From assembly GCA_029263015.1 (NCBI GenBank), contig JAJCYI010000182.1, forward strand, positions 1 through 64,000: 64,000 nucleotides of DNA, given 5' to 3'. Every line of letters starts with the position of its first letter. Position 1 is the stretch's first letter. Below are positions 49,657 through 58,644 of the stretch, in pieces. The position numbers and the translations under genes are program-made. Origin of the DNA: Saprospiraceae bacterium. Lineage in GTDB: Bacteria; Bacteroidota; Bacteroidia; Chitinophagales; Saprospiraceae. A model generated the notes under the pieces. It searched no databases, was not told the DNA's origin, and saw only the letters and a program-made list of their open reading frames with translations.

Positions 49657-50397
49657 CAGAAAAGTAAATAGAATTTTTATCCCTAAGCTATTAAGCGATA
49701 TTACAAAAAGTGGACAAGGTTAGTAAATGCCTGATATTCAATATTTTGCAAAAAATACAGGATGGTTTAGCACACGCATTCAGTCCTGCTTTGTCACATT
49801 AAATTGTTGTTTAGGAAACATGCTTTTCCTACCGCTAAAGGCCAAGCAGTCACAAGGAAAGGTGCATGATTAAATAATCAGATGGGTAGTGATAACTTTT
49901 GATCAGAGAAATGCAAATAGGGAGTTCCTATAATTTTTTCAGGCACACTATTATTTTGTTGATGAAGTCTGAATTGACATGTGTCTCTCAAATCAAAAAT
50001 CAAACGTCATGTAATCAAAAATCTTAAATCAACTCCTCTTCAATTTTGGGTGAATAGCAACGGGTTCAGATGTGTATCAATGACTTTCCCTACCTCCGCC
50101 CCCGGGCACCAGGTGTGCCAGTCGTTTACTTGGTTTTGATTCGGCACTTAGGAATGGTCATTACTTTTCGGAGATCGTTGGTGGTGGCCCCAGCCTGATG
50201 GAAAACCCAACCAGAATGAAAAGAGGTTCATGTCCATATTTATTATTGAAGTTGTTTAAAGTTCTGCGGCGAGACTAAATATAAATGCTTGGTTATCAAG
50301 ACGAAGCTGCGGGACGAAAAATAGCTGAAGTATTTGAGGATCAATGATCTGTATTTAGGCCATCGGAATAACTTTAAACAACTTCATTGTCAAACCC
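49657..50397. other. Non-coding region with a terminal-inverted-repeat element
   Basis: About 740 bases with no convincing gene between two minus-strand genes. It contains a 138-base element at 50248-50385 with perfect 16-base terminal inverted repeats, and a GC-rich patch (CCGCCCCCGGGCACCAGG, around 50097-50114) that looks unlike its surroundings. It may hold remnants of a small mobile element. Confidence 0.5.
50248..50385. mobile_element. MITE-like element with 16-base terminal inverted repeats
   Basis: GAAGTTGTTTAAAGTT (50248-50263) and its perfect complement (50370-50385) enclose 106 bases without coding capacity. The layout fits a miniature inverted-repeat transposable element. No transposase is present in the window. 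Confidence 0.4.
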
Positions 50398-51474
50398 TCA
50401 CTCCAGCAATCCAATCTTCTTCGCCCGTTCCTCCCATTTCTTTCGCGCATAATGCTGCAGGTCGGGAATGCTGTCTGATTCATCCATAATTTCAAAGCCT
50501 AAAATTGTCTCAAACAAATCCTCAAGAGTGACAAGGCCGATTACGCCGCCATACTCATCGGAAACGGCAGCAATGTGCGATCGGTGTTTGGACAAAAAAT
50601 CAAATAACTGGGGCAATTTTTTATTGTCGTTGACAATCGCCAATTCCCGTTTTATGGTTTTTAGGGCGGTGTCTCCATGACCTTCTAACATACCCTTAAA
50701 TACCTCGTTTTTAAGAACAAACCCAGTGAGGTTGTCCTGGTCTTCACCAAATATTGGAATCCTCGAAAAAGATATTTTTACTTCCGATTCATATAATTCT
50801 TTAAGGGTATTATTTTCATTAGCAATAAACATCATCGTGCGCGGAGTCATAATATCCTTTGCACTCAACTCATTCAGATGGAGCAGGTTTTGGATGATGG
50901 CCATTTCGTTTTCTTTCAAAGCCCCACTCTTTTTGCCCAAACTTGCCATCGCTAAAAAATCGGCTCTTGAAAAAACACTTTTTACATCCTTGGATTTGAG
51001 GTTTTTGGTAATCAACATACTGAGCCAGATAAATGGCTTGAGTATAAACAGGAGAATTTTCAATGACCGAACCGTAAAACCAGCAAGCGAATTCCAGTAA
51101 TTCGCGCCTAATGTTTTGGGAATGATTTCTGAAAGGATCAGAATCGCCAAAGTCATTAATGCGGCGATGACGGATTCAACGGTCAGCTCAAGGCCAAGAA
51201 TGTTAAATGGGGTGGTCTCATCAAAAAGCAGTTGCGCCTGTGCCCCCACGCCCATCGCTCCAACTGTGTGGGCAATTGTGTTCAAAGTGAGGATGGCCGA
51301 CAATGGGCGGTCAATATCTTGTTTGAAAGATTGCAAGGATTTGCCGAGCCTGGTCCCTTCCTCTACTTCCCGGTTGACAAAAGCAGGTGTGATGCTCAAC
51401 AGCACCGCCTCCCAGATCGAGCAGAGAAAAGAAAAGGAAATAGAGATTACAAAAAATAATATCAGTAGTGTCAT
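50398..51474 (-). CDS. CNNM/CorC-type CBS-domain membrane protein
   Basis: A 358-residue protein. The N-terminal DUF21 domain has about four membrane spans (residues 1-165), followed by two CBS domains (about 195-330; KDIMTPRTMMFIANENNTLKELYESE and SKHRSHIAAVSDEYGGVIGLVTLEDLFETILG). This is the TlyC/CorC hemolysin-like family, linked to magnesium or cobalt efflux. It lies upstream of a repeat-rich spacer and is transcribed on the minus strand. Confidence 0.88.
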   Translation of the reverse strand: MTLLILFFVISISFSFLCSIWEAVLLSITPAFVNREVEEGTRLGKSLQSFKQDIDRPLSAILTLNTIAHTVGAMGVGAQAQLLFDETTPFNILGLELTVESVIAALMTLAILILSEIIPKTLGANYWNSLAGFTVRSLKILLFILKPFIWLSMLITKNLKSKDVKSVFSRADFLAMASLGKKSGALKENEMAIIQNLLHLNELSAKDIMTPRTMMFIANENNTLKELYESEVKISFSRIPIFGEDQDNLTGFVLKNEVFKGMLEGHGDTALKTIKRELAIVNDNKKLPQLFDFLSKHRSHIAAVSDEYGGVIGLVTLEDLFETILGFEIMDESDSIPDLQHYARKKWEERAKKIGLLE

Positions 51475-51497
51475 GTAGTAGGGTTCAGTGGTTTATT

Positions 51498-51557
51498 GGT
51501 TTACAGGTGTATAGGTGTATAGGTGTATCAGTCTATAAACCGATATACCTATAAACC
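51498..51557. repeat. Tandem AGGTGTAT repeat within a hairpin
   Basis: Three exact direct copies of AGGTGTAT (51505-51512, 51513-51520, 51521-51528), flanked by an imperfect inverted repeat GGTTTACAGGTGTAT (51498-51512) and ATATACCTATAAACC (51543-51557). It lies between the CBS-domain gene and the ATP-grasp-like gene. It may be a transcript-end hairpin of the five-gene run. Confidence 0.5.
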
Positions 51558-51606
51558 AGTAATCCTCTCCACAAAAATAGGGAAAAGGCAATGGCAGTTC
51601 AGCTTC

Positions 51607-52803
51607 TCACATTTCAAAAAAACCGATGCTCCCTCCGACCCAGGTCTTCCCCATATTATACCTCACCCCAACCATTTCCCCTTTGCTCAACCTGACCAAG
51701 CTGGTGAGGACTTCAGGCCGGGGAGCATCCTTTTTCCAGGCCATTAATAGGCGCACTTCTGCTTTGGCAGGCTCATCCAATGTTTGTATGATAGGCGCGT
51801 AACTGACCTTTTTTTGCAAAATAAAATTGTCCCGTTGATTTTCGGGAATGGCATCAATGTCAGCCTTGGTCGGGTTCATGATAACCCCTTGGCCAGAGAA
51901 AGAATAAAGGGGTTTCAAGACATAGTTGGCAAGGTCTTCCGGAATTTCATTTTCGTTTAGATAAAACGAATCTGGCACAAAAGAGCTATTGAAGAGGGGC
52001 AAGGTGTGCTTGCTGACCCTGGCGAACCAATGGGGGTGACCGACCCATTCGACATTATATTCATTGGGGAAATAGAACTCCCGTTTCAAATCAGGCCGCT
52101 TTAAAAGTTCATCAAAAATGACTCGATTGTAAATGCGCTCTACACCTATTTTTTTACCATTTTCATCCAAATAAAATACGTCCCGGCCATCAACCTTCAG
52201 ATCGCTGACGCACAAAGTCCTCACCCCAATTGCCTTTTTCATGGCCCAAAAGTCGATTTGAGTATTTTGTTTGCGGGGTTCGATGTCTATGAGCACCACA
52301 TTTTCTGCGCGGGCATCTCCCAAAATAAGCTCTCGCAATGTCTCCGTATATGTTTCAGCAGTATAGCCTCCAAAAAGGTGGTTTAGGTTTTCGGGTATGT
52401 CAAAATGTTTTCGATAGGCTGTGGCACACAAGTGCTGATAAAAAAACAGGGAAGGAAATCCTTGTATTTCAATAAGTTGTGGCGAGATATTGCCTTCTTC
52501 ATCTTGGCAAATACCAAAATCTACACAAAGAAATGCAGTGTGGGCAGTCTCGTTCGGTACAAAATGATCGGGCAATATAGAAGCTTGCGATAATTCTTTG
52601 AAATTAGGCTGACTTATCACATCGGTCAGTTCGGAACAAGCTTGCAGCAACTGCTCAGTCAGTTGTTTTGGAATAAAGATCGGGGTTTCGGATATTTTGA
52701 AAGATGCCCGATAATTGACATGTCTCTCTATTGTGTTTAAAAGAGACTGGTATTTCTCTTCGGTGAAAGATTGATTGAATGCACTTCTTAGGTGGGAGAT
52801 CAT
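51607..52803 (-). CDS. ATP-grasp-like protein, last gene of the Septu-containing run
   Basis: A 398-residue protein of unrecognised exact family with ATP-grasp-like features in the C-terminal half: YVLKPLYSFSGQGVIMNP (lysine and glycine-rich loop, about residue 292), FILQKKVSYAPIIQT, and the acidic EVRLLMAWKKD. The N-terminal half has LIEIQGFPSLFFYQHL. It starts three bases after the HNH gene ends, so it is almost certainly in the same transcript. It may ligate an amino group to a carboxylate using ATP. Function is inference; the fold is likely but not proven from sequence. Confidence 0.6.
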   Translation of the reverse strand: MISHLRSAFNQSFTEEKYQSLLNTIERHVNYRASFKISETPIFIPKQLTEQLLQACSELTDVISQPNFKELSQASILPDHFVPNETAHTAFLCVDFGICQDEEGNISPQLIEIQGFPSLFFYQHLCATAYRKHFDIPENLNHLFGGYTAETYTETLRELILGDARAENVVLIDIEPRKQNTQIDFWAMKKAIGVRTLCVSDLKVDGRDVFYLDENGKKIGVERIYNRVIFDELLKRPDLKREFYFPNEYNVEWVGHPHWFARVSKHTLPLFNSSFVPDSFYLNENEIPEDLANYVLKPLYSFSGQGVIMNPTKADIDAIPENQRDNFILQKKVSYAPIIQTLDEPAKAEVRLLMAWKKDAPRPEVLTSLVRLSKGEMVGVRYNMGKTWVGGSIGFFEM

Positions 52804-52806
52804 TGG

Positions 52807-53490
52807 TTATATTTTACCATCCGGTCTGTGGACTGGATTCCCATTTTGATCAAAACAATCCATGGCTGTACCAGGGAAAGCATTGATGAGGGCAAGTTTT
52901 ATTGTTCTCTCATTTTTGAAAACAATCATCCAAATAGAAAAAAAGCCATGCCCCAAAGCGGTTTTGACTATCTGGTTTTGCATCTCTTTTTTTTGCATCG
53001 CATTCCAGTTGTTCAGACTGTCTTTCGCTATGCTCCAAACAAACTCTCTGTGAAGATGTCGTTTATCTGCTTTGGTGCATGGCTTTTCCGAGTTGGGTGT
53101 CCTGTTGAGACCGAGTAAATTGATAGTGGCAAGAGCCGTTTCCAACTGTTGTCCCGAAAGGGTGGAATTGGGTTGGATTATTTTTGTTTCATCATATTCA
53201 AATGCCCAGAAAGTATTGTCCTGGTCTGGCCAATAATAGCCAGAACGGGAAGAAACAAGGGATCCTTTATTGCTCGACCCATTGCAGTGGCGACAGGCAA
53301 GTAGAAAGTTTTCCCAACTACCTAAACTACCACCTTTAGAGGTGGCGACCGCATGTTCCACTTCAATTGAATTGTTCACCCTCATTTCACAGTAGGAACA
53401 ATAGCGTCCGATAGTAACTGCCAAAGGGTCTCGTGCAGTTTGGTAAGGTTTGAATTCTTCGTTTCGTTCTCCTTTGTCAACAGGGCGCAT
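52807..53490 (-). CDS. ptuB: PtuB-like HNH endonuclease (Septu defence)
   Basis: A 227-residue HNH nuclease. The zinc and catalytic layout is C31-x2-C34, then E45-H46, N61 and C66-x2-C69 (motifs YCSYCE, EVEHAVATSKGG, LLACRHCNGSSNKG). It resembles the TIGR02646-type HNH proteins found as PtuB in Septu and in some retron systems. It begins six bases after the AAA ATPase gene ends. No reverse transcriptase gene is present in the window, so the retron version is excluded here. The ATP-grasp-like gene starts three bases later. Confidence 0.8.
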   Translation of the reverse strand: MRPVDKGERNEEFKPYQTARDPLAVTIGRYCSYCEMRVNNSIEVEHAVATSKGGSLGSWENFLLACRHCNGSSNKGSLVSSRSGYYWPDQDNTFWAFEYDETKIIQPNSTLSGQQLETALATINLLGLNRTPNSEKPCTKADKRHLHREFVWSIAKDSLNNWNAMQKKEMQNQIVKTALGHGFFSIWMIVFKNERTIKLALINAFPGTAMDCFDQNGNPVHRPDGKI

Positions 53491-53496
53491 CAGGCT

Positions 53497-54849
53497 TCAT
53501 TTTTTCTTAGCCTTGTAATCGGCCTTTGGTTCGTTCAATACATTTGCTCCCCTTTTCAAAGAGGTTTCTTTTAACAGTCTTTTTTGTTCTAAAAAAGCAG
53601 TATAGGCCACGTTTGCCGCAAAAGGTTTTTTGATTAGTTCCAGTTCTTCTCGGAGCAATTGGATTTCGTCTTCGTCCTTTTCAGCATCCATGCTTTCGAG
53701 TTTTTTAAAAAAAAATTTGGCCGAATCGTACATTTTTTCGCGCTTCTTACTCCACTGCGGATTCACGACCCCCTGTATTTCTTCTACTATATCTTCTATG
53801 CTTTGGCTAGTGAAATTTTCTGGCATTTCTTCATATTCATTATCTAATCTAATGATGCCATCTTCATAATCAAGTGATTGGATAATAAATGGTGAATGCG
53901 TCGTAACGATGAATTGACAATTTGGGAAAATTCGCTTCAAGTCACTGATGATCGTGCGCTGCCATTTGGGATGCAAGTGGAGGTCTATTTCGTCTATCAG
54001 CACCACTCCGGGCGAATCGGTGGCAATGTGGGGGTTGAGTTCGGCCATGCGGAAGGCGATATCCGCTACCATGCCGATCATGTTTCTTTGCCCACCGCTC
54101 AACATGCTGAACGGGAGTTCTTTGCCATTGCCAATGTCAATATACAATTGGTCGTCTTCTGGTGAGAATATGGCTTGGGTTGGAGCAGAGTTACCTCCTT
54201 GAAATACTCCCAATGATTTTTTGACAGCATCCGTAACAGCCTGATATTCAGACGGAATGGTTTTTCTTTTAACTAAAATAAGTTCCATCCTTAAAAACCA
54301 CTCTTCAATGATTTTGAAATTGGTATTGGGCTTGAGGCAATCTTTGTAAGTATCAAGTCTGGATGCTATTTTACGTGGCTCAATTTTTCCTGTCTTTCCT
54401 GAAGACCAATACCTATCTGTGCCATAATATGCTATCATCGGGAGTACGACAGGAGTATTTTGCTGGACTTTTAAATAGGTTTTATTAAGGTATTCATTGA
54501 CTTTCCCCAAATGCCCGCCCCCAGGTCCATAATGCCAATCAATAATTTCGTTGTCCTCCACAGAAGCGGTGGCTTTGATTTTGGCATCGCGCTGTTTTTC
54601 AAGATTGGTTTTCACTCCCAGCCTATGTGGGACAACACGGATTTCATTACCATTCCAGTTCTGAAGGTTATCGGTGTCGCTACCTGAAAATTCTGCCTGC
54701 AGGTGAGCCAAGGCTTTGGCGATCCCATCTAAAACTGCCGTTTTCCCACTTCCATTATCCCCAACCAAAACCGTGAAGCGCTCGCCGAAAGAGAAAGTTC
54801 TTTCTTCAAAGCATTTGTAGTTTTTTAAATATATTTCCTTAAGGAACAT
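53497..54849 (-). CDS. ptuA: PtuA-like AAA ATPase (Septu defence)
   Basis: A 450-residue ABC/SMC-type AAA protein. Walker A is GDNGSGKT (residues 30-37), the signature is SMLSGGQRNM, Walker B is VVLIDEIDLHLHP, and the H-loop is TTHSPF. A helical insertion separates the two halves of the ATPase core. In Septu, PtuA forms a complex with the HNH nuclease PtuB, encoded next to it, and the pair blocks phage. Start is the first ATG of the frame. A weak TAACTTTAG sequence (54874-54881 on the minus strand) could be an internal promoter, so the pair might be expressed separately from the upstream genes. Confidence 0.8.
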   Translation of the reverse strand: MFLKEIYLKNYKCFEERTFSFGERFTVLVGDNGSGKTAVLDGIAKALAHLQAEFSGSDTDNLQNWNGNEIRVVPHRLGVKTNLEKQRDAKIKATASVEDNEIIDWHYGPGGGHLGKVNEYLNKTYLKVQQNTPVVLPMIAYYGTDRYWSSGKTGKIEPRKIASRLDTYKDCLKPNTNFKIIEEWFLRMELILVKRKTIPSEYQAVTDAVKKSLGVFQGGNSAPTQAIFSPEDDQLYIDIGNGKELPFSMLSGGQRNMIGMVADIAFRMAELNPHIATDSPGVVLIDEIDLHLHPKWQRTIISDLKRIFPNCQFIVTTHSPFIIQSLDYEDGIIRLDNEYEEMPENFTSQSIEDIVEEIQGVVNPQWSKKREKMYDSAKFFFKKLESMDAEKDEDEIQLLREELELIKKPFAANVAYTAFLEQKRLLKETSLKRGANVLNEPKADYKAKKK

Positions 54850-54889
54850 AAACTTAGATTTGTTGGAATGGGCTAAAGTTAGGTATTTC

Positions 54890-55717
54890 TCATACCAATT
54901 GCATGCTATTTTCCCTTACTCTCTGAATGGCTTTCCGCAGGAAAAAGGGCAGCACGATTGCATGTGTTTTTTCAATTTTATCAGGGTGGTTTAGATCTTT
55001 GACCATTGAGGCCAATTTTCCTTTGCCATATTCTTTGACAATGGCCACCATGCGTTCATTTTCTGTGAAATACCCGCGCATGCCATTGGCATCGGCTTCA
55101 GGATGGAACTGTGTGCCGACCATTTCGTCCGAAAAACGAACAGCCATCATGGCCCTCGGTAAGCCCTCTTCTTCCCTTTCCATTTCTATCAATAATAGCT
55201 TGGCACCTAGTTCTTTCATTCTATTACGATTGGGTTCAATGACTTGGTATTCCCTAAAATCAGCCACCCAAAACGGGTCGTCCAAGGCACGGAAAAGCCA
55301 TTCTTTTTGGCCAGCGTCCGTTTTGTGCACAGGAAATGTACCGAACGACATTTTACGTCTGCGGGCGATGTTGCCAATGCCAAAATGATGACAAGCCATT
55401 TGGAAAGAGTGGCAAATAAAGAAACAGTATTTTTTACTGCCGTCGCCATATTTATTGTGCTGCCAAATGTCCTCGATCAAATCGTTGAATGGCTTCAACC
55501 AGCTTTCATCGCCCACCAGTGGGTTGCCCGGCCCTCCTGAGAAAATGTATATATCGTAACCAAGATCAGGGACTTTCACCTCGCTCCGCACATCAAAAAT
55601 TTCGTATTCGATGTAATGAGAAAATTCTTTTACAATTTCCTGAATATTCTGCATACCCAAATTTCGGATGCCTTCGTACAAATCCAGGATCGCTAATTTT
55701 ACAGGTATCTTATCCAT
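54890..55717 (-). CDS. Class I glutamine amidotransferase (GMP synthase-like)
   Basis: A 275-residue protein with a class I GATase fold. The likely catalytic cysteine is in FICHSFQMACHHF (the usual GxCxG is altered), with the partner histidine and glutamate in GTQFHPEAD. It therefore probably transfers ammonia from glutamine to a partner. It lies between an upstream ATP-grasp ligase (75 bases) and the AAA ATPase (40 bases), on the same strand. The acceptor substrate is not known. Confidence 0.75.
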   Translation of the reverse strand: MDKIPVKLAILDLYEGIRNLGMQNIQEIVKEFSHYIEYEIFDVRSEVKVPDLGYDIYIFSGGPGNPLVGDESWLKPFNDLIEDIWQHNKYGDGSKKYCFFICHSFQMACHHFGIGNIARRRKMSFGTFPVHKTDAGQKEWLFRALDDPFWVADFREYQVIEPNRNRMKELGAKLLLIEMEREEEGLPRAMMAVRFSDEMVGTQFHPEADANGMRGYFTENERMVAIVKEYGKGKLASMVKDLNHPDKIEKTHAIVLPFFLRKAIQRVRENSMQLV

Positions 55718-55792
55718 TTATATTTACAAAATGGTTGGATGGCTGAGTAGTTAAATGATGATGGTTTGCAAAGCCATTTAACCATTCAGCCA

Positions 55793-56773
55793 TTATTTTT
55801 TCTTACGCTTCACAGGCGGCTTGGGCATTTTCCCTTTTATGCTGTCCTGCATGAAAGTGCCCCAAGTCAAGTTGTGCTGGCCAGGCTTATGTTCCTGTGC
55901 CTTTTCAATTGCAAAAGTCGCCATTGTTTCGACGACCCACTCGAAGTTCTCCTTTCCAACGGAAGCAACATCTGCATCGGGGGCAGGGTTGCAAAAGTCA
56001 ATAGCATAAGGGATGCCATCTTTGACTGCAAACTCCACGGTATTAAAATCGTACCCCAATCCATTGCAAAGACGAAAGGTATAATCTTCCATAATAGCCA
56101 GAAGTTCTTTAGAAGCTTTATGGTCCGCCACATAGCGTGAGTGGTGTGGGTTGCGTGGTTCGTAATCCATGATACGCACGTATTTTCGGCCTATGCAATA
56201 GCAACGGAAATAACTTTCAAAATCAATTGCTTCCTGAAACATCATCACCAATTGTTCGGTTTCGTTATACGCCTTGAATACTTCTGCCCAGTCGCCGACC
56301 GGATAAACGCTTTTCCAGCCTCCTCCTGAGTGTGGCTTCATGAATGCCGGAAATTCGCCAAGGTACTCTGTCATCGCTTCCCATTCGAGTGGGAATTTCA
56401 GGTTGGTGAAACTTTCAGCGGAAGTGTCGTCGGGATGATCTTTACTGGGAAGGAGGACCGTCTTTGGAACAGGTACGCCAAGTTGCTCAGCAAGTACATT
56501 GTTAAAAAATTTTTCATCAGCACTCCACCAAAATGGGTTATTGATGACTGCGGTGCCTGTGGCTGCTGCGTTTTTTAGAAATGCCCTGTAAAATGGTACG
56601 TCTTGGGAAATGCGGTCAATGATTACATCATAGCCACATGGCTGGTTCATCATTACTTCTTCCACTTTCACATATTCGGCGGTGATCCCTTTCACCGCTT
56701 TTGAATTCACCCGCTCAACGAATGCACTTGGGAAACTACGTTCTTTCCCGAATAGGATGCCTATTTTCTTCAT
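55793..56773 (-). CDS. ATP-grasp ligase, first gene of the run
   Basis: A 326-residue ATP-grasp enzyme. Visible parts are IGILFGKERSFPSAFVERVN (N-terminal fold), PAFMKPHSGGGWKSVYPV (ATP-binding lysine and glycine loop, about residue 145), FMMFQEAIDFESYFRCY-like segment, and EFAVKDGIPYAIDFCNPAPD (metal-binding Glu/Asn, about residues 265-290). The basic C-terminal tail ends in PVKRKKK. Such enzymes ligate carboxylates to amines. It begins an apparent operon of five genes. Confidence 0.72.
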   Translation of the reverse strand: MKKIGILFGKERSFPSAFVERVNSKAVKGITAEYVKVEEVMMNQPCGYDVIIDRISQDVPFYRAFLKNAAATGTAVINNPFWWSADEKFFNNVLAEQLGVPVPKTVLLPSKDHPDDTSAESFTNLKFPLEWEAMTEYLGEFPAFMKPHSGGGWKSVYPVGDWAEVFKAYNETEQLVMMFQEAIDFESYFRCYCIGRKYVRIMDYEPRNPHHSRYVADHKASKELLAIMEDYTFRLCNGLGYDFNTVEFAVKDGIPYAIDFCNPAPDADVASVGKENFEWVVETMATFAIEKAQEHKPGQHNLTWGTFMQDSIKGKMPKPPVKRKKK

Positions 56774-56886
56774 TATGTTTTGAATTTTATGTGTAGTTCA
56801 AAATGGGGGGATGGCAGAGCTGGGATTTCCCTACATTTGCCTGCCGTGCCTCATAGATTGTTATGATTCTTACTGTAATCGAGGCG

Positions 56887-56894
56887 CAAAGCTA
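56887..56894 (-). promoter_or_regulatory. -7 promoter box of the ATP-grasp/Septu run
   Basis: The minus strand reads TAGCTTTGCG, an exact TAnnTTTG match, 114 bases upstream of the ATP-grasp start codon and adjacent to an AATCGAGGCG element (56877-56886). No TTG is found 19 bases further upstream. Confidence 0.45.
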
Positions 56895-57018
56895 CATTGA
56901 TTTATTCTAATTTGCCTTAGGTACAATTATTTCATCTTAGAGTATATCTAAGATTTGTTCTTTCTGAGAACCAATACTTAAAAACCCTTACTCCAAAAAC
57001 AAGAACCTAATAAATTTC

Positions 57019-57888
57019 ATGATCGAATTACAGAATAAGAAGGCGGGCACGGTAGAGACCGGATACGAGATAACGAGTATCCTCAAAGACGGAATTACTA
57101 TTCACCAAATCAAGCAATTCCGGTCAACGTTTTTGGATACGCGATTCAAAATAGATGTTTATCTCCCACCGGATTTTGATGCTGGTAGTCACGGCAAATT
57201 CCCCCTGTTGCTTTTCAATGATGGCCAGGACATGCAGCAAGTTAGGCTTACACAAACCCTTCATCGCCTTTTTTTGCATAAGAAAATACCTTCCATAATT
57301 GTTGTGGCGATCCACGCTGGCAATCGCTTGCACGAATATGGTACTGCCGGGCAGCCCGATTACAAAAACCGGGGAGACTTGGCAGGTCGATACGCCAAAT
57401 TCATAGCGGCAGAATTGCTGCCATTCCTCCAAAAAAAATATCCCTGTGAAACACATCCTGGCAAAGTCGCCTTTGGGGGTTTTTCGCTCGGCGGACTTTC
57501 TGCACTGGATATTGTCTGGAACCATCCTCAACACTTTGGAAATGTTGGCGTGTTCTCAGGAGCGCTTTGGTGGCGGCACTCCGATTTTGAGGAAGGCAAT
57601 CCTGACACCCACCGCATCATGCACGAAATCATTCATCAAGAGGAACGCCGCCCTGGGCTGAAGTTTTGGTTTCAAACGGGCACCTTGGATGAAAAAGACG
57701 ACCGCAACAACAATGGTATAATAGATTCCATCGACGACACCCTTGACCTCATCAAAGAGTTAAAAAACAAAGGTTATTCTGACTCCGACATTCACTACCG
57801 AGAAGTCAAAGGTGGTATCCACCACCCCTCCACCTGGGGCAAGGTACTTCCAGAATTCCTGGAATGGTGTTTTTCGGAAGAGAAGTAA
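57019..57888 (+). CDS. Esterase-family alpha/beta hydrolase
   Basis: A 289-residue hydrolase of the putative esterase (Esterase D-like) family. The catalytic serine is in GGFSLGGLSALDIVW, with a DGQDMQQVRLTQ segment and a conserved KGGIHHPSTW near the end carrying the histidine. No signal peptide. It is divergent from the ATP-grasp gene, with 245 bases between them, and may belong to the same regulon. Substrate unknown. Confidence 0.8.
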   Translation: MIELQNKKAGTVETGYEITSILKDGITIHQIKQFRSTFLDTRFKIDVYLPPDFDAGSHGKFPLLLFNDGQDMQQVRLTQTLHRLFLHKKIPSIIVVAIHAGNRLHEYGTAGQPDYKNRGDLAGRYAKFIAAELLPFLQKKYPCETHPGKVAFGGFSLGGLSALDIVWNHPQHFGNVGVFSGALWWRHSDFEEGNPDTHRIMHEIIHQEERRPGLKFWFQTGTLDEKDDRNNNGIIDSIDDTLDLIKELKNKGYSDSDIHYREVKGGIHHPSTWGKVLPEFLEWCFSEEK

Positions 57889-57942
57889 AAATGAATATGC
57901 TGCAACTTTTTACTTTTGCCTTTTTACCTTTTACTTGAATCC

Positions 57943-58644
57943 ATGAAAATAATTATCACAGGCGCAACCAAAGGCATCGGCAAAGCAATTGCCGAAAAAT
58001 TCGCTGCGGAGGGTTTTGATCTCGCCATATGCTCCCGCAACAACGAAGACCTCAAGGGTTTCAAAAAAGAAATGCAATCCAAGCATCCCCAAATTGAAGT
58101 GCTGACCAAAGTGGCAGACATGCGCAAGAAAACGGAGGTGCTTGCATTTGCAGCGTTTGTAAAAAAACATTGGAACGGAATCGACGTCCTCGTCAATAAC
58201 GCTGGCCTTTTTATCCCTGGTGAAATAAGCAAAGAAGAAGATGGCGCCCTCGAACAGATGGTCGAAACCAACCTTTACAGTGCCTACCACCTGACCCGTG
58301 CGCTGCTCCCCGTCATGCTCGACAGAGGCAGCGGCCATATTTTCAATATGTGTTCAATTGCAAGCCTGATCGCCTATCCGAACGGTGGATCATATAGCAT
58401 CTCCAAATTTGCATTGCTCGGCTTTTCCAAAGTGTTGAGGGAAGAAATGAAAGACAAAGGTATCAAGGTCACTTCTATACTGCCCGGAGCCACCTGGTCG
58501 GCAAGCTGGGCTGGAGTGGATCTGCCAGAGAGCCGTCTGATGCAGGCCAACGACATTGCCATAGCTGTGTGGAGCGCCTGGACGATGAGTCCGTCCGCAG
58601 TGGTAGAGGATATAGTGATAAGGCCACAGTTGGGGGATTTATGA
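57943..58644 (+). CDS. Short-chain dehydrogenase/reductase
   Basis: A 233-residue SDR with the cofactor loop IITGATKGIGKAIAEKF, the NNAG motif (VLVNNAGLFIPGE), and catalytic Ser, Tyr and Lys in NMCSIASL and SYSISKFALLG. The TGxxxGxG form suggests NADP(H) or NAD(H) use. The substrate is not known. The ATG at 57943 is preferred to one at 57916 because the SDR fold begins there. It is in the same direction as the esterase, 54 bases downstream. Confidence 0.85.
   Translation: MKIIITGATKGIGKAIAEKFAAEGFDLAICSRNNEDLKGFKKEMQSKHPQIEVLTKVADMRKKTEVLAFAAFVKKHWNGIDVLVNNAGLFIPGEISKEEDGALEQMVETNLYSAYHLTRALLPVMLDRGSGHIFNMCSIASLIAYPNGGSYSISKFALLGFSKVLREEMKDKGIKVTSILPGATWSASWAGVDLPESRLMQANDIAIAVWSAWTMSPSAVVEDIVIRPQLGDL

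What the first reader, a model, noticed from the sequence alone, without database searches (positions are those of the whole stretch)
51607..56773. Septu-like PtuA/PtuB pair embedded in an ATP-grasp/glutamine amidotransferase run
Seen: five minus-strand genes with gaps of 75, 40, 6 and 3 bases: ATP-grasp ligase, class I GATase, AAA ATPase (GDNGSGKT, SGGQRNM, IDEIDLHLHP), HNH nuclease (CxxC, EH, N, CxxC) and an ATP-grasp-like gene. Known: the ATPase-HNH combination in this order is the Septu defence system. Inference: either Septu inserted between the parts of a conserved amidoligase operon, or the ligases and amidotransferase are new partners that modify, activate or restrain the nuclease. A three-base spacing between ptuB and the second ATP-grasp-like gene favours co-expression. 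A divergent esterase (57019) may belong to it.
Basis: partly seen in the sequence, partly recalled or inferred. Interest (0 to 1): 0.85.

Follow-up and report, generated by a model that had tools for sequence, protein, structure and literature searches.

The report
Septu phage-defence pair inside ligase operon
A common two-gene bacterial phage-defence unit (Septu) sits in the middle of an unrelated, conserved three-gene enzyme operon, and related species show that the operon and the defence unit each occur without the other, so this looks like a small defence cassette lodged in a host operon and not a new multi-enzyme defence system.

Summary
In detail: five minus-strand genes with gaps of 75, 40, 6 and 3 bases. 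They encode a RimK-like ATP-grasp ligase (AG1), a class I GATase (GAT), PtuA, PtuB and a second ATP-grasp-like protein (AG2). PtuA/PtuB are full-length PADLOC Septu matches (387 and 248 bits). The first alternative, Septu inserted in a conserved operon, is supported; "ligases as new Septu partners" is not. In the genus, 11 of 13 relatives have AG1-GAT-AG2 with nothing inserted. In a family sample, 101 of 199 genomes have GAT and AG2, and 69 of 72 adjacent pairs have gaps under 400 bases. PtuAB loci fetched elsewhere lack the ligases nearby; PtuA and operon presence are not associated (p=0.23). The insertion is not unique: two relatives (G012, and G011 across a contig break) carry PtuAB in the same slot. 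The three carriers are not a clade, and in G011 and G012, though hardly in G000, PtuAB differs in composition from the flanks. So one intra-operon slot has been filled or emptied repeatedly, with no integrase gene or notable repeats at its ends. A second such slot lies beside a glycosyltransferase.

The parts
55793..56773 (-). AG1: RimK-like ATP-grasp ligase (326 aa), first gene of the host operon
   Evidence: ORF; TIGR00768 E 3e-7, below cut-off; KPHSGGG motif; 64-85% identity to 16 chosen relatives
54890..55717 (-). GAT: class I glutamine amidotransferase (275 aa), C102/H205/E207 kept
   Evidence: PF00117 E 2e-9; invariant residues
54850..54889 (-). 40-nt leader between GAT and ptuA; similar leader in G011 and G012 by eye, with TAnnTTTA (promoter role unproven)
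   Evidence: sequences; motif test inconclusive
53497..54849 (-). ptuA: Septu ATPase (450 aa), Walker A and B intact
   Evidence: PDLC00278 387 bits; PDB 8ee4 PtuA E 5e-43; motifs
52807..53490 (-). ptuB: Septu HNH nuclease (227 aa)
   Evidence: PDLC00315 248 bits; PF01844 E 9e-7; PDB retron PtuB 9vh1 E 4e-5
51607..52803 (-). AG2: probable circularly permuted ATP-grasp (glutathionylspermidine-synthase/YgiC-like) acid-amine ligase (398 aa), last gene of the host operon
   Evidence: weak: YgiC 7uk8 E 0.026; CP_ATPgrasp_1 in 8 of 22 and GSP_synth in 4 of 22 members at E up to 1, none for the window's own protein; co-inherited with GAT in 101 of 199 family genomes
57019..57888 (+). divergent esterase (PF00756), neighbour of the host operon in 11 of 14 genus genomes, not part of Septu

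Best explanation
A Septu (PtuA1/PtuB1) anti-phage cassette occupies a slot between GAT and AG2 of a conserved amidoligase operon (AG1-GAT-AG2) in this Bacteroidota genome, and works independently of it. The operon most likely makes a small amide or peptide-like metabolite: GAT frees ammonia from glutamine, and AG1 and AG2 form amide bonds (inferred from families). PtuA and PtuB work by themselves as in known Septu: an SMC/ABC-type ATPase that controls an HNH nuclease, which cuts phage DNA or a host tRNA on infection (inferred from homologues). The operon gives the cassette co-directional transcription (inferred from spacing). The slot has been gained, replaced or lost several times within the genus. 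As to how, I prefer repeated arrival, by exchange of the cassette between genus members through the shared flanking genes (inferred), over one ancestral insertion with four or more losses; the confidence below is for the independent-cassette reading under either history.
For: Operon without Septu: 11 of 13 other genus genomes; 69 of 72 adjacent GAT-AG2 pairs in a 199-genome family sample have gaps under 400 bases. GAT and AG2 are co-inherited (101 genomes with both; 1 with AG2 only, 2 with GAT only, a G175 AG2 fragment left out), even where not adjacent. Septu without the operon: of 75 fetched PtuA/PtuB loci only the eight that belong to the three slots carry AG1, GAT or AG2. PtuA presence is independent of operon presence (18 of 29 versus 83 of 170, Fisher p 0.23). 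Same slot in G000, G012 and G011, which do not form a clade (p-AU 1e-40 operon; 2e-30 rpoB). For repeated arrival: GC3 in G012 is 69-79% in the flanking genes versus 49-51% in ptuAB; in G011 62-72% versus 36-53%. PtuB of G011 and G012 is as diverged as their flanking genes (third-position identity 50% versus 51-61%), so they did not recently copy from each other.
Against: In G000 itself the composition difference is small (GC3 46-48% flanks, 41-43% ptuAB). The slot copies are nearest relatives of each other (46-69% identity by part; next 37-39%, or 41% over residues 1-333 of the G003 copy), and their divergence order matches the hosts' (PtuB 73/62/60%, AG2 83/68/68%), which also fits one ancestral insertion. 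Flanks of G011 stay like its sister G007 up to the junction, with at most a slight GC3 dip, so a recombination tract is not shown. Low GC3 may be a lasting trait of defence genes. ptuB-AG2 spacing of 3-4 bases in all three genomes leaves room for a maintained link. No activity was tested.
Confidence: 0.8

Rival explanations
1. The five genes form one new defence system: the ligases and amidotransferase modify, activate or restrain PtuAB, or make its co-factor.
For: Tight spacing 75/40/6/3; same slot in three genomes that are not a clade; ptuB-AG2 3-4 bases apart in all three.
Against: Operon complete without ptuAB in 11 of 13 genus relatives, and GAT-AG2 tightly adjacent in 69 of 72 family pairs; fetched ptuAB loci elsewhere lack the operon genes; no association of presence; a second PtuAB-like pair of the same genus sits in another slot beside a glycosyltransferase.
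Confidence: 0.07
2. History variant, lying inside the best explanation and not outside it: one ancestral insertion, inherited vertically, with at least four later clean losses (G010, G008, G007 and the G001/G004/G006/G009/G013 group; five if G004 is placed as in the operon tree).
For: Slot copies are nearest relatives of each other; divergence order congruent with hosts; third-position identity of PtuB like that of flanks; GAT-ptuA leaders similar in all three by eye; composition of ptuAB in G000 is near that of its flanks.
Against: GC3 of ptuAB well below the flanks in G011 and G012, although residence long enough for third positions to fall to roughly 40-60% identity should have equalised it; each loss must be seamless; loss in G007 after its split from G011.
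Confidence: 0.35
3. Assembly artefact or random ORF call.
For: G000 is a draft of 245 contigs; the G011 copy is split between two contigs.
Against: Continuous sequence in the window and in G012, same order, about 56-60% protein identity in ptuA and ptuB, intact frames.
Confidence: 0.01

Closest known systems
Septu defence system, PADLOC PtuA1/PtuB1 (solved PtuA 8ee4)
   Same: Adjacent ptuA-ptuB, SMC/ABC-type ATPase and HNH nuclease with intact motifs; full-length profile matches.
   Different: Lies inside a metabolic operon, between GAT and AG2; activity untested.
Retron Ec78 / type I-A retron PtuAB effector
   Same: Related PtuA and PtuB (NCBIfam PtuA 220 bits, PtuB 31 bits).
   Different: Below the equivalog cut-offs (500 and 150); none of the five genes or the neighbours that I annotated is a reverse transcriptase; no Rfam match in 50000-58000.
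Amidoligase operons of ATP-grasp and glutamine amidotransferase genes (general kind, recalled; Iyer and colleagues 2009, not read)
   Same: AG1-GAT-AG2 looks like a biosynthetic amide-forming set.
   Different: Product unknown; my two searches listed no paper on this set (listings, passages of one paper).
Defence hotspots between core genes (PMC10250203, PMC10121019; search listing only)
   Same: Defence genes come and go at a fixed site between conserved genes.
   Different: Here the slot is inside an operon, about 2 kb, one system, with only ptuA and ptuB in it.

Membership tests
Septu | ptuA: ATPase of the PtuA family with Walker A and B | tested here: met
   PDLC00278 387 bits; motifs; PDB 8ee4 E 5e-43
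Septu | ptuB: HNH nuclease directly downstream of ptuA | tested here: met
   PDLC00315 248 bits; 6-base gap
Septu | protects against phage, needs both enzymes | not testable with these tools
   no experiment possible
Retron I-A (PtuAB effector) | reverse transcriptase and msr-msd RNA with ptuAB | tested here: not met
   none of the five genes or the annotated neighbours (CNNM, esterase, SDR, AAA_14/DUF4143) is an RT; Rfam none in 50000-58000; the rest of the window was not scanned for an RT
New five-gene defence system | the five genes keep together across genomes | tested here: not met
   11 of 13 genus relatives have the operon without ptuAB; ptuAB elsewhere without operon genes nearby
ATP-grasp (AG2) | ATP-grasp fold | tested here: inconclusive
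   weak profile hits only; single-sequence fold unusable, pLDDT 33
Class I glutamine amidotransferase (GAT) | Cys-His-Glu catalytic triad | tested here: met
   C102, H205, E207 invariant in 26 rows; that these are the triad is recalled from the family. The only PDB match of the profile at E up to 0.001 is homoserine O-succinyltransferase 2vdj, E 6e-4

The most novel reading that the evidence does not exclude
In the genomes where ptuAB sits in the slot, the defence pair is functionally tied to the amidoligase pathway (for example its product keeps PtuAB silent, or AG2 output depends on translation through ptuB), and the repeated use of the same slot reflects selection for that link and not only a handy promoter.
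Probability: 0.08. Interest if true: 0.7.

Novelty: new member of a known kind. Interest (0 to 1): 0.3.

Why it matters
It warns against reading gene order alone as a new defence system: the comparison separates the defence pair from the ligases. It also gives a clear small example of a defence cassette that comes and goes at one slot inside a conserved operon, with a second such slot in the same genus, which makes the question of how cassettes without an integrase find the same site testable in strain-level genomes.

Tried and rejected
Single-sequence AlphaFold of AG2: pLDDT 33, not used. Profile searches against the PDB: nothing for AG1 at E up to 0.01, YgiC E 0.026 for AG2. Direct repeats at the cassette ends: longest 7 bases in G000 and G011, reached by 180 and 130 of 300 shuffles; none of 7 or more in G012. 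Own promoter for ptuA: TAnnTTTA is present in all three leaders (by eye), 32 bases before the start in G000. In the motif count TAnnTTTG within 29 bases of the start had 9 hits in 85 first genes against 0 in 55 internal ones, but TAnnTTTA had 2 against 1, and at 30-59 bases 1 against 2, so the ptuA element gives no evidence either way. A scan of GTDB contigs for PtuB relatives gave only two distant Parabeggiatoa loci, without AG1, GAT or AG2. Papers: none of the nine listed papers that hold both 'septu' and 'ATP-grasp' is about this, judged from titles and abstract starts; Li et al. 2024 on Septu PtuAB is not held.

Rows left out: the fragment matches of G175, the second match of G220 and the second match of G090 were dropped, so 102 AG2 and 103 GAT genomes were compared. 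The operon tree used 14 genus genomes and 6 of the other family loci; the rpoB tree lacks G006, which had no match. Alignments A1-A3 used 22, 17 and 26 chosen members. Nine PtuA matches never became loci and their neighbours were not looked at.

Full report
Observation. PtuA is a full-length match to PADLOC PtuA1 (PDLC00278, 387 bits, residues 1-428) and matches the solved Septu PtuA 8ee4 (E 5e-43); PtuB matches PtuB1 (PDLC00315, 248 bits, residues 1-223). Walker A, LSGGQ, Walker B and HNH motifs are intact. The GATase keeps C102, H205 and E207, invariant in 26 aligned members. AG1 is RimK-like by a weak NCBIfam match (E 3e-7). AG2 has no family match of its own; among 22 members there are weak matches to circularly permuted ATP-grasp (8 of 22) and glutathionylspermidine synthase (4 of 22) models, and YgiC in the PDB at E 0.026. 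I call AG2 a probable ATP-grasp.

The host operon without Septu. The GATase is found in each of the 13 other genomes of the genus. In 11 of them AG1, GAT and AG2 follow each other with nothing between; in G012 and G011 ptuA follows GAT. In a sample of 199 family genomes, 101 have both GAT and AG2, one has only AG2 and two only GAT (a short G175 fragment of AG2 was left out). In 72 genomes the two are adjacent on one contig; 69 of these have a gap under 400 bases. The three exceptions are G000 (2090), G012 (2079) and G154 (1155 bases, holding a NYN-domain ORF on the other strand). In 29 genomes they are not adjacent: in 27 they lie on different contigs, in G097 and G208 on one contig some 754 kb and 200 kb apart. 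Such co-inheritance, in places without adjacency, speaks for one pathway of GAT and AG2 that does not need ptuAB.

Septu without the host operon. Of 75 fetched PtuA or PtuB loci from the family, genus and phylum searches, 51 of which also show a PtuB match, only the eight that belong to the three slots in G000, G011 and G012 carry AG1, GAT or AG2. Most loci reach about 1.5 kb to each side, some are cut by contig ends, several are one place fetched twice, and nine matches were not fetched. A further locus (L143, G711) holds PtuA and PtuB and none of the operon genes. PtuA (E up to 1e-25) is in 29 of 199 family genomes, 18 of them with the operon, against 83 of 170 without PtuA: no association (Fisher p 0.23). 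Among 398 family genomes 6 have a PtuA match at E up to 1e-60; besides the slot copies these are 36-39% identical. The G012 copy is 57% identical; the G011 copy 46% in residues 1-213 and 69% in 246-448.

Same slot, three non-sister genomes. In G012 the order is AG1-GAT-ptuA-ptuB-AG2 on one contig. In G011, AG1-GAT-ptuA(N) ends one contig and ptuA(C)-ptuB-AG2 ends another; continuity there is inferred. The GAT-ptuA leader is about 40 bases and similar in all three by eye, and ptuB-AG2 spacing is 3, 4 and 4 bases. The carriers are not a clade: the sister of G000 is G010 and the sister of G011 is G007, both empty. One clade is rejected by the operon tree (20 rows, p-AU 1e-40) and by rpoB (13 rows, p-AU 2e-30); both trees need three changes of state.

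Gain or loss. For repeated gain or replacement: in G012 the flanking genes have GC3 69-79% and ptuA/ptuB 49/51%; in G011 62-72% against 36-53%, with the flanks keeping host composition up to the junction apart from a slight dip in G011. In G000 the difference is small (46-48% against 41-43%). For one old insertion with four or more losses: the slot copies are nearest relatives of each other, their divergence order follows the hosts (PtuB 73, 62, 60%; AG2 83, 68, 68%), and third-position identity of PtuB is like that of the flanking genes (G011-G012: 50% against 51-61%). G004, G001 and G013 share empty-site sequence before AG2 (by eye), so their common ancestor had the empty site; in the rpoB tree G004 falls with G001, G013 and G009 (93/94), in the operon tree with G007 and G011 (95/93), so this does not decide it. 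I put repeated arrival or exchange somewhat above ancestral gain with losses. The slot holds only ptuA and ptuB, no integrase or transposase gene, and no repeat above chance flanks it.

A second slot. In the genus, another ATPase-HNH pair (the HNH match is weak: E 8e-4, below cut-off, in G000; none by Pfam in G003 and G012) sits directly upstream of a conserved GT2 glycosyltransferase gene. Of 14 genomes 12 have the GT2; 6 of these 12 carry the pair there (G000, G001, G002, G003, G007, G012), in 5 it was not found (G004, G005, G006, G008, G009) and in G011 the contig ends at the GT2 (a much diverged pair could be missed). The HNH gene has GC3 16-36 points below its GT2 in the six. So a fixed place next to a conserved gene is not special to the amidoligase operon, which lowers the case for a specific partnership with ligases.

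How it most likely works. Shown: gene content, intact motifs, slot polymorphism. Inferred: the operon makes an amide-bonded metabolite; PtuAB acts by itself. [quoted passage not shown] coli strain needs the Walker and HNH residues and cuts tRNA-Tyr in the variable loop (PMC13096335, passages). Which target the present pair has is unknown.

Verdict. A member of Septu by sequence, with an unusual and repeatedly used address; not a new five-gene system on present evidence. Interest 0.3.

Noticed in passing
L094:3811-7835 (G000:C163), L098:3132-7265 (G012:C27), L093:5419-9311 (G003:C29), L144-L155: A second, diverse ATPase-HNH pair sits directly upstream of a conserved GT2 glycosyltransferase in 6 of 12 genus genomes that have the GT2; in 5 the pair was not found and one cannot be told (contig end).
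   Followed up: partly
L094:7832-8550, L098:7262-7977, L152:783-1495: A HEPN plus nucleotidyltransferase (MNT) gene pair precedes the ATPase-HNH-GT2 run in G000 and G012, and in G009 stands next to the GT2 with no ATPase-HNH found.
   Followed up: partly
L090:4529-5137: In G154 a NYN-domain (RNase-like) ORF on the opposite strand lies in the same GAT-AG2 gap.
   Followed up: no
window 53497-54849: PtuA is uneven between the three slot copies: residues 101-213 are 32-47% identical, 246-350 are 78-90%; GC3 in G011 and G012 is low in the first stretch and higher in the second, as in a mosaic.
   Followed up: partly
window 50398-51474: Downstream of AG2 the window has a CNNM/CBS gene (GldE-like, below cut-off), whereas G008 has a HemD-like and a DUF4271 gene there, and ORFs of like size and strand stand there in several other genus genomes.
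   Followed up: no
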